44,934 nt of DNA from Balneolales bacterium. Lineage in GTDB: Bacteria > Bacteroidota > Rhodothermia > Balneolales > Cyclonatronaceae. The position numbers were made by a program, and so were the translations under genes. The first letter of the stretch is position 1. Each line of letters begins with the position of its first letter. Below, piece after piece: positions 7,077 through 17,240 of the stretch. Below the pieces are notes generated by a model. That model made no database searches and was not told the DNA's origin. It saw only the letters and a program-made list of their open reading frames with translations. The stretch lies in assembly GCA_022565805.1 (NCBI GenBank), contig JAIULZ010000014.1, positions 1 to 44,934 of the forward strand. Direction: 5' to 3'.

Positions 7077-7406
7077 TACCCCTAAACGATGTGGATAAGT
7101 TGTGGGTAAATTTATTCCATGCTTTCCCATCACATATTTCGAGGGGAACAAACTCTGTTAACTCAATATTAAGACGTGTCAAGCATCATTTTTATAAAAG
7201 CACATAATTTAGCTTAGATAAGCATTATCAGAATCTTATTATGCGAACATAACTTGTGGATAACTGCTGCTGACGCAGATCGCGACACTTTGACATCGAG
7301 CAAATTATTCACCATTTTTAGGGAGTGGTTACAGAACAAAGAACCTCACCATTTGTGGATAAATACTTACAATATTTTCTCATTACCCTTTAATTAATAA
7401 TAATTC
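7077..7406. promoter_or_regulatory. dnaA upstream region with DnaA boxes, candidate oriC
   Basis: This 330-base gene-free stretch holds three exact copies of the DnaA box TGTGGATAA (7090-7098, 7255-7263, 7354-7362) and one copy with a single mismatch (TGTGGGTAA, 7101-7109), all in the same orientation. A/T-rich sequence lies between them around 7180-7225. This is the pattern of a dnaA-linked origin and/or an autoregulated dnaA promoter. The box matches are directly seen; origin function is inferred. Confidence 0.65.
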
Positions 7407-8888
7407 GTGTCTCAGCAAGATCTCAAAACGCTATCAGGCGAGCTTGCAGTTGAAAGATGGTCGAAGTGCCTTGGTATCATAAAGGAGTCGGTAAATTCTC
7501 AAAAATTTTCTGCATGGTTTGAGCCAATCAAGCCTCTTAGAATGGAGGGTAATACCCTTACTATACAGGTGCCTTCGCAATTTTGGTATGAATGGCTGGA
7601 AGAGCATTACTACAGCATCATCCGAACTACTATTAAGACGGTGCTCGGCAAAGATGGCAAGCTCCAGTATTCCATAAAAGTGGATAACACGCCCGATTCT
7701 TATCAGGGTAACTACAACTCCGTAAACCTACCACAAAGGCCATCACCCTCTGAGTACGGCGGGCAGAATTCTGTGAACAGCATGCCCACGTATCCTGCTG
7801 GCCAAATACAAAATCCATTTGTTATACCCGGCATTCAAAAACGTAGTTTAAATTCCAACCTGAATTCAAACTACGTTTTTGAACGCTTTATAGAAGGCGA
7901 CTGTAACAGACTGGCGCGTTCGGCAGGTATTGCCATAGCAGAAAAACCGGGAAATAATTCATTTAACCCGTTCTTTATTTACGGGGGTACAGGTTTAGGG
8001 AAAACACACTTAACCCAAAGTATTGGCAACCAGATTCGCAGGGATTTTCGTGGCGAAAAAAATATCTTATACACCACCTCCGACGATTTCACCAACGAAT
8101 TTGTACAGGCCATCCGTAATAACCGTGCAAATGAGTTTTCTATGCTTTATCGCAGCATAGATGTACTCATTATTGATGACATCCAGTTTTTTAGCGGCAA
8201 GGAAAAAACTCAGGAAGAGTTCTTCCACATTTTTAATGCGCTTCATCAGGAGGGCAAACAGATTATCTTAACCAGCGACCGCGCTCCAAAAGATATCCCC
8301 GATATTGAAGAACGCTTAATTTCCCGATTTAACTGGGGGCTTGCGGCCGATTTACAAATGCCTGATTACGAAACACGTTATGCTATTCTGGAACGCAAAG
8401 CGATGGATAATGGAATTGAGTTCGATCCGAAAATTTTCGAGTTCATAGCTACTAATTTCAAATCTAATGTGCGCGATCTCGAAGGTGCTATCATTAAATT
8501 GCTTGCCGCTTCTTCTTTACAACATTTGGATGTCATAGATTTACCAACTGCTAAAAGAATCCTTAAAGACATGATAAAGGATACCAATAAGCAGATAACA
8601 GTAGAAAACATACAATCTCTGGTATGCGAATATTTTGGTATCGACACGAATAAAGTACGTGAGAAAACACGCAAACAAGAAATTGTTGAAGCCAGACAAA
8701 TTGCTATGTATTTGGCAAAAAAGCTTACTAAGTCCAGCCTTAAGTCCATAGGTCTGCAGTTTGGTGGTCGCGACCACTCTACTGTAATACACGCCATAAC
8801 CACCATAGAAGACCGTTTACAAACCAGTACTAGGCATGTACAAATTATTAAAGATCTGCAGCAAAAGATTGAGCTGGCAAGTCTTTAA
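7407..8888 (+). CDS. dnaA: Chromosomal replication initiator protein DnaA
   Basis: DnaA binds 9-bp boxes at the origin, opens the duplex and recruits the helicase. The 493-residue protein has all four domains. Domain I is at about 10-95. A variable Asn/Pro/Ser-rich domain II linker spans about 95-150. The AAA+ domain III has Walker A (GGTGLGKTH) near 193-201 and Walker B (VLIIDDIQF) near 253-261. Domain IV is a helix-turn-helix with the box-reading signature GGRDHSTVIHA near 450-462. The start is GTG at 7407 with no Shine-Dalgarno. The coding DNA at the domain II/III junction contains a 22-bp near-perfect inverted repeat (7834-7883). folB follows 21 bases after the stop. Confidence 0.98.
   Translation: MSQQDLKTLSGELAVERWSKCLGIIKESVNSQKFSAWFEPIKPLRMEGNTLTIQVPSQFWYEWLEEHYYSIIRTTIKTVLGKDGKLQYSIKVDNTPDSYQGNYNSVNLPQRPSPSEYGGQNSVNSMPTYPAGQIQNPFVIPGIQKRSLNSNLNSNYVFERFIEGDCNRLARSAGIAIAEKPGNNSFNPFFIYGGTGLGKTHLTQSIGNQIRRDFRGEKNILYTTSDDFTNEFVQAIRNNRANEFSMLYRSIDVLIIDDIQFFSGKEKTQEEFFHIFNALHQEGKQIILTSDRAPKDIPDIEERLISRFNWGLAADLQMPDYETRYAILERKAMDNGIEFDPKIFEFIATNFKSNVRDLEGAIIKLLAASSLQHLDVIDLPTAKRILKDMIKDTNKQITVENIQSLVCEYFGIDTNKVREKTRKQEIVEARQIAMYLAKKLTKSSLKSIGLQFGGRDHSTVIHAITTIEDRLQTSTRHVQIIKDLQQKIELASL
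7834..7883. repeat. 22-bp near-perfect inverted repeat inside dnaA
   Basis: Arms 7834-7855 and 7862-7883 are complementary at 21 of 22 positions around a 6-nt loop. It lies wholly inside the dnaA reading frame, encoding about residues 143-159 at the linker/AAA+ boundary. The mRNA would form a long stem-loop here. The single mismatch is A opposite C. Confidence 0.9.
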
Positions 8889-16164: not shown

Positions 16165-17163
16165 ATGTCCCGATTCTATAATTTTATTGAAAAAATACGG
16201 GGAAAGCTTCAGTTACCTCACTCTTCCGCTGCCAATAAAGGGTCGGAAATGCAGCAGTCTGAAAAATTAATCGTTTTTGTTTTTGCGTTTAGTATTGCAG
16301 CCGGCCTTTGGCTTTTAATCAACTTAGGCAGAGATTTTGTTGTTACCGTTCAGATTCCGCTCTCTTACGGAGAATTCCCGGAAAATATGGCACCTGTACA
16401 GCAACTACCCGATTATACTACAGCGACCTTTACAGGAGAAGGCTGGAAACTTCTTAATTTATACGGCAATTTACCAGCAGTAATGGTAGACCTTGATCTG
16501 TCCAATACAAATCTATATGATACCATTCAGCTTCAAATGGCTTCTGCTCAGGATATTAGTCTTGCCAGAGTAGAACCTGCTGCTGTAACGGTAGAAATGG
16601 AAGAGGCCCTTAGCCGTAGAGTTCCCGTAAAAAGTAATATAGACCTGCAAATTCGCAGGCAGTTTGGTCTTATTGGTGAGCCAAGACTTATCCCAGATAG
16701 TGTAACTGTGTCGGGAGCCCGTTCTTTAGTAGAAAATATTAAAAGCTGGCCTACACGCACCGTTACTTTAGAAAATTTGAATCAGTCTTTCAGTACTGAG
16801 ATACAATTAGAACAAAGTAATGAACTAGTTCGATTAAGCCACTCCAGCGTTCTGCTCGATGCACAAATCGCTGAGTTTACAGAAGGTGAACTTAGAATTC
16901 CGGTAGAACTAGAGGGTACCCCAAGACATGGCAGAGTTGCATTGTCACCATCTATCATTACGGTTCGTTATAATGTTCCTGTTTCGCAATACAGGCAATC
17001 CAGAGAGCGGCTTCTTATAAGGGCTGTTGTTAATTATACAGATATAGAAAGTGATAACACTGGTTTTATCGAGCCTGTTGTTATTGTTGAAAGTAATGAG
17101 CTAAACGTTAGCATTCGCTCAGTAAGCCCAAGACGACTTTCTTATTTTCTTGTAATCGACTAA
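16165..17163 (+). CDS. YbbR-domain membrane protein
   Basis: A 332-residue protein with a cytoplasmic N-terminus, one transmembrane helix (about residues 34-54) and a periplasmic region made of YbbR-like repeats. Each repeat is a beta-rich unit with a Val-Pro start and a P(D/A)SVTVSGA-type strand, clearest around LIPDSVTVSGARSLVENI (about 176-193). YbbR proteins are usually the partner of the CdaA diadenylate cyclase (CdaR-like), but no cyclase is in this window. The stop codon lies inside a perfect 16-bp inverted repeat that separates it from the convergent ispH gene. Confidence 0.85.
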   Translation: MSRFYNFIEKIRGKLQLPHSSAANKGSEMQQSEKLIVFVFAFSIAAGLWLLINLGRDFVVTVQIPLSYGEFPENMAPVQQLPDYTTATFTGEGWKLLNLYGNLPAVMVDLDLSNTNLYDTIQLQMASAQDISLARVEPAAVTVEMEEALSRRVPVKSNIDLQIRRQFGLIGEPRLIPDSVTVSGARSLVENIKSWPTRTVTLENLNQSFSTEIQLEQSNELVRLSHSSVLLDAQIAEFTEGELRIPVELEGTPRHGRVALSPSIITVRYNVPVSQYRQSRERLLIRAVVNYTDIESDNTGFIEPVVIVESNELNVSIRSVSPRRLSYFLVID

Positions 17164-17203
17164 TGATTGAGTTGTTCAATTTTGTTTAACAACTCAATCA
17201 TTA
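17161..17203. terminator. Perfect 16-bp inverted repeat between ybbR and ispH
   Basis: Arms 17161-17176 and 17188-17203 are perfectly complementary around an 11-nt loop. The first arm begins with the TAA stop of the YbbR gene. The stem is A/T-rich and no clean T-run follows on either strand, but its place between convergent genes suits a bidirectional end-of-transcript structure. Confidence 0.55.
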
Positions 17204-17240
17204 GAGCACGATTCATCAATTAAGCCATGCAATTTTCCAC

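What the first reader, a model, noticed from the sequence alone, without database searches (positions are those of the whole stretch)
7834..7883. A 22-bp near-perfect hairpin inside the dnaA coding sequence
Arms of 22 nt match at 21 positions with a 6-nt loop. A match of this length by chance in one gene is very unlikely. It lies at the variable linker/AAA+ boundary, where inserts are tolerated, so it may be a regulatory RNA structure controlling DnaA synthesis, or a relic of an inserted palindromic element that stayed in frame.
Basis: partly seen in the sequence, partly recalled or inferred. Interest (0 to 1): 0.6.

Follow-up and report, generated by a model that had tools for sequence, protein, structure and literature searches.

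The report
Template-switch hairpin inside dnaA gene
In one soda-lake-type bacterium a short stretch of the dnaA replication gene has been overwritten with a mirror copy of its neighbour, most likely by a known kind of DNA-copying slip, leaving a strikingly perfect hairpin that shows no sign of being a conserved control element.

Summary
The hairpin is real: arms 7834-7855 and 7862-7883, 21/22 paired, 6-nt loop, inside an intact dnaA (7407-8888). It is not chance. In 1.3 Mb of this genome's coding DNA it is the only stem of at least 20/22, and synonymous recoding gives none. It is not an insert: 91 dnaA genes of the order have the same-length segment, and the arm occurs nowhere else in the genome. 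It is not a conserved RNA structure: pairing falls to 10-18/22 in congeners and about 5-14 outside the family, no consensus fold forms, and covariation does not exceed shuffles. Congeners carry a poorer quasi-palindrome whose right arm is already nearly the same. Only the left arm changed much: its 15 nt 7835-7849 equal the reverse complement of congener G001's right arm, including all three differences, which give Arg146-Ser147, a pair not seen in the other 90 dnaA. No match this long occurs in 1060 control pairs. Best explanation: a quasi-palindrome template-switch mutation converted the left arm using the right arm as template, a well-known mutational mechanism. Regulation of DnaA synthesis is not supported but not excluded.

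The parts
7407..8888 (+). dnaA, 493 aa, GTG start, intact frame
   Evidence: ORF; Pfam DnaA_N, Bac_DnaA and Bac_DnaA_C; PDB DnaA matches
7834..7855 (+). left arm of the hairpin, 22 nt; the derived (overwritten) arm
   Evidence: differs from congener G001 at 7838, 7843 and 7845
7835..7849 (+). inferred converted tract, 15 nt, identical to the reverse complement of the right arm of congener G001; carries the changes giving Arg146-Ser147
   Evidence: compare
7856..7861 (+). loop CAACCT
7862..7883 (+). right arm, 22 nt; the template arm, nearly the same in congeners (codons for N-S-N-Y-V-F-E/D)
7868..7882 (-). inferred template stretch for the converted tract
   Evidence: reverse complement of 7835-7849
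7850..7850 (+). remaining A.C mismatch with 7867, which bounds the converted tract on its 3' side
   Evidence: same A.C mismatch in G001
7851..7871 (+). codons NSNL-NSN; the repeated NS codons contain the self-complementary word AATT/GAATTC and so seed the inner stem. In G002 the LNSN repeat is a perfect 12-nt tandem, CTGAATTCAAAC twice
   Evidence: read from the sequences

Best explanation
The hairpin is the footprint of a quasi-palindrome template-switch mutation. The genus already had an imperfect inverted repeat here, seeded by repeated Asn-Ser codons containing the palindrome GAATTC, with a right arm encoding the conserved Asn-Tyr-Val-Phe. In this lineage the polymerase, paused at the repeat, briefly copied the right arm instead of its proper template (from the folded nascent strand or the opposite strand) and then returned. 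This overwrote about 8-15 nt of the left arm with the reverse complement of the right arm, changed His-Arg or Asn-Arg to Arg-Ser, and left an almost perfect stem. The Asp-to-Glu codon at 7881-7883 added the outermost pair, by the same process or separately. Shown: the hairpin, its rarity, the absence of an insertion, the derived left arm and conserved right arm, and the exact reverse-complement match. Inferred: that the changes arose in one event, the strand, and the lack of function.
For: The right arm is nearly the same in congeners G001, G002, G003 and G005, while the left arm is unique to this genome. Its 15 nt 7835-7849 match the reverse complement of G001's right arm exactly and include all three G000/G001 differences. 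With G003 as source, 14 nt match and include 6 differences. In 1060 other ordered dnaA pairs the longest such match is 14 nt, once. Retained mismatches flank the tract (T.T in congeners at 7834/7883; A.C at 7850/7867), as expected of a bounded switch. Arg-Ser occurs at these two columns in none of the 90 other genes, and Ser in one. G001 and G002 already have 17-18/22 at this place, so a substrate existed. Independent codon draws from the five congeners reach 20/22 in 0 of 200000 trials. The genome's ORF interiors show a mild excess of 11-13-nt perfect stems (16 against 6.4 expected). The mechanism is documented in E. coli (PMC7202029), in yeast coding genes with amino-acid changes (PMC8604942), and for RNA stems (PMC8794818).
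Against: The nearest sequenced relatives are far (third codon positions 56-60% different), so one event cannot be told strictly from several steps. Placement of G000 within the genus is weakly supported (54%). G001 and G002 also pair better here than synonymous recodings of their own proteins (P about 0.0007 and 0.0002), which could hint at a maintained structure rather than only an inherited quasi-palindrome. No ancestral reconstruction was run.
Confidence: 0.77

Rival explanations
1. A selected RNA (or cruciform DNA) structure that controls DnaA synthesis or replication near the origin. The stem would slow ribosomes, attract a nuclease or bind a regulator.
For: Very stable stem (-24.2 kcal/mol, z -9.9). 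G001 and G002 also fold here (z -3.7 and -5.4), and their pairing exceeds synonymous recodings. The site is about 0.5 kb from predicted DnaA boxes.
Against: Congeners G003, G004 and G005 and other family members do not keep it (9-15/22). No consensus fold forms for the family. Covariation is no higher than in shuffles (96-222 of 500 as high). No Rfam family fits: the hits are microRNA models far below their gathering scores. The stem lies mid-ORF, 430 nt after the start codon, where translating ribosomes unwind structure.
Confidence: 0.12
2. Stepwise ordinary substitutions that happen to pair.
For: Divergence is high, so many codons have changed. Glu at 159 is common in the order.
Against: 0 of 200000 independent codon draws from congeners reach 20/22, and 1e-4 reach 21/22 even when G000's own codons are in the pool. 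Recoding 1.3 Mb of ORFs never gives 20/22.
Confidence: 0.06
3. Relic of an inserted palindromic mobile or repeat element kept in frame.
For: Near-perfect palindrome in a variable linker region.
Against: No length difference in any of 91 dnaA. Flanking and internal residues are homologous throughout. No other copy in the genome, in relatives outside dnaA, or in viral contigs.
Confidence: 0.01
4. Laboratory artefact: a PCR or assembly template switch wrote the palindrome.
For: PCR polymerases switch templates at inverted repeats (PMC5218489), and the genome is a 290-contig draft.
Against: The frame stays open and the residues remain acceptable. An artefact would have to dominate the reads to enter the consensus.
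Confidence: 0.04

Closest known systems
Quasipalindrome-associated template-switch mutation in bacteria (E. coli thyA and lacZ reporters; PMC7202029)
   Same: An imperfect inverted repeat becomes more perfect by copying one arm onto the other, with clustered changes explained by a nearby template.
   Different: Here it is seen as a fixed difference between species in dnaA, not as a selected laboratory mutation. The event itself was not observed.
Template-switch arm homogenisation in yeast coding genes (PMC8604942)
   Same: Multi-nucleotide changes in one arm, giving adjacent amino-acid replacements inside a protein-coding gene.
   Different: Arms there are mostly 7-11 bp, 16 at most. Here the uninterrupted stem is 16 bp, and 21 of 22 with one mismatch.
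Template switching creating RNA hairpins (PMC8794818)
   Same: One event perfects a stem without a history of compensatory changes.
   Different: Those are RNA genes under structural selection. This is a coding sequence with no sign of conserved structure.

Membership tests
Quasi-palindrome template-switch mutation | A pre-existing imperfect inverted repeat at the site | tested here: met
   G001 and G002 have 17-18/22 at the same place
Quasi-palindrome template-switch mutation | Clustered differences in one arm equal the reverse complement of the other arm | tested here: met
   15-nt match with 3 differences against G001; none this long in 1060 control pairs
Quasi-palindrome template-switch mutation | Template arm unchanged, target arm derived | tested here: met
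   Right arm shared by congeners, left arm unique; polarity read from extant sequences only
Quasi-palindrome template-switch mutation | All changes arose in a single event | not testable with these tools
   Nearest relatives too distant
Conserved cis-regulatory RNA structure | Structure kept across relatives with compensatory changes | tested here: not met
Conserved cis-regulatory RNA structure | Match to a known family | tested here: not met
   only sub-threshold microRNA models
Inserted palindromic repeat element | Presence/absence of the segment among relatives, or other copies | tested here: not met

The most novel reading that the evidence does not exclude
The quasi-palindrome in dnaA of this genus is a lineage-specific functional element (mRNA stem or cruciform close to the origin) that tunes DnaA synthesis or replication, and template switching has kept or perfected it in some species.
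Probability: 0.08. Interest if true: 0.6.

Novelty: new member of a known kind. Interest (0 to 1): 0.3.

Why it matters
It is a clean natural example of template switching rewriting two adjacent residues of an essential replication protein in a bacterium. It cautions against reading a strong in-gene hairpin as a regulatory RNA without a comparison of relatives. If many such cases exist, they would let one measure template switching as a source of multi-nucleotide protein change in bacteria.

Tried and rejected
Insert or mobile-repeat reading: rejected by alignment and copy searches. Conserved RNA structure: no covariation above shuffles and no consensus fold. Rfam: only microRNA models far below cut-off. 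Other coding hairpins in the genome: two further 19/22 stems fell inside called ORFs, L176:16088-16135 (118 nt into the call, terminator-like sequence) and L183:10484-10544 (13 nt into the call). Both lie close to the called ORF start and are probably mis-called ORF starts. Strand of the switch: overwriting the left arm from the right by a folded nascent strand would mean synthesis running right to left. That is the lagging strand if the fork leaves the upstream origin, whereas a leading-strand preference is reported for E. coli (cited in PMC8794818). GC skew near dnaA is too weak to fix the fork direction, so this stays open.

Full report
Observation. The window is one whole contig of a 4.47-Mb draft genome (290 contigs). 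Its nearest relatives are Balneolia/Balneolales metagenome genomes. dnaA is at 7407-8888. The inverted repeat 7834-7855/7862-7883 is exactly as described: 21 of 22, loop 6. It extends to 25-nt arms at 92%, and the RNA fold is -24.2 kcal/mol, z -9.9.

Chance. In 1.645 Mb of this genome (about 37%), 23 stems reach 19/22 or better with loops of 3-40. All but three lie outside called ORFs and most look like terminators; two of those three lie at ORF starts. The dnaA stem is the only one of at least 20/22 in an ORF. Recoding the same ORFs with synonymous codons gives on average 1.5 stems of 18/22, 0.06 of 19/22 and none higher. Among 91 dnaA genes of the order the best 22-nt stem is typically 14-16 paired. 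G000 has 21; the next are G001 and G002 with 18, at the same place.

What relatives show. The segment has the same length in every dnaA, so nothing was inserted. The right arm encodes N-Y-V-F-E/D, nearly invariant in the order, and its DNA in congeners G001, G002, G003 and G005 is within three mismatches of the G000 arm. The left arm is the odd one out. Congeners encode Gln-Lys-His/Asn-Arg-Leu and G000 encodes Gln-Lys-Arg-Ser-Leu; Ser at that column occurs in 1 of 90 other genes, and Arg-Ser as a pair in none. Against G001 the left arm differs at 7838, 7843 and 7845. All three bases are what copying the right arm would give, and the match to the reverse complement of G001's right arm is 15 nt long and exact. 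Against G003 it is 14 nt with six differences. In 1060 control comparisons between other dnaA pairs, matches of this kind reached 14 nt once and 15 nt never. The tract is flanked by positions that were not converted: 7850 keeps the A.C mismatch also seen in G001, and at 7834 the left arm keeps T although the congeners' right arm would dictate A.

Structure conservation. Paired positions are 21 in G000, 17 in G001 and G002 (18 with a shifted loop), 13 in G003, 11 in G005, 10 in G004, 9-15 in the rest of the family, and 5-14 in the order. G001 and G002 do pair better than recodings of their own proteins (P 0.0007 and 0.0002). I read this as an inherited quasi-palindrome seeded by the LNSN-LNSN peptide repeat, whose codons contain GAATTC. 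A function in part of the genus is not excluded.

Mechanism. The parsimonious account is a quasi-palindrome template switch: the nascent strand at the repeat copied the right arm, then returned. Literature in the held library describes this outcome in E. coli (PMC7202029) and in yeast genes with adjacent amino-acid changes (PMC8604942), and argues that it can perfect RNA stems at one stroke (PMC8794818). The mild genome-wide excess of 11-13-nt perfect stems inside ORFs (16 observed, 6.4 expected) fits a general mutational tendency but could also reflect local composition. The single-event claim, the strand and neutrality are inferences.

Verdict. A real, highly non-random feature, explained by a known mutational mechanism. 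It is an attractive example, not a new element or regulator.

Noticed in passing
window 7090-7362: Three perfect TTATCCACA DnaA boxes (7090, 7255, 7354, minus strand) and a one-mismatch box at 7101, directly upstream of dnaA: a likely replication origin.
   Followed up: partly
window 17160-17204: A 20-nt, 95% inverted repeat between two convergent genes, probably a bidirectional terminator.
   Followed up: partly
L164 6285-6546: Three similar palindromes (TAATCGATTTTCACGGTAA...TTACCGTGAAAATCGATTA) within 260 nt, outside called ORFs: a small intergenic repeat family in this genome.
   Followed up: no
G002 dnaA (L006), codons of LNSNLNSN: Perfect 12-nt tandem repeat CTGAATTCAAAC x2 at the hairpin site in a congener.
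   Followed up: no
G000 ORF interiors (1.0 Mb sampled): Perfect stems of 11-13 nt with loops of 3-30 are about 2.5 times more frequent than after synonymous recoding.
   Followed up: no
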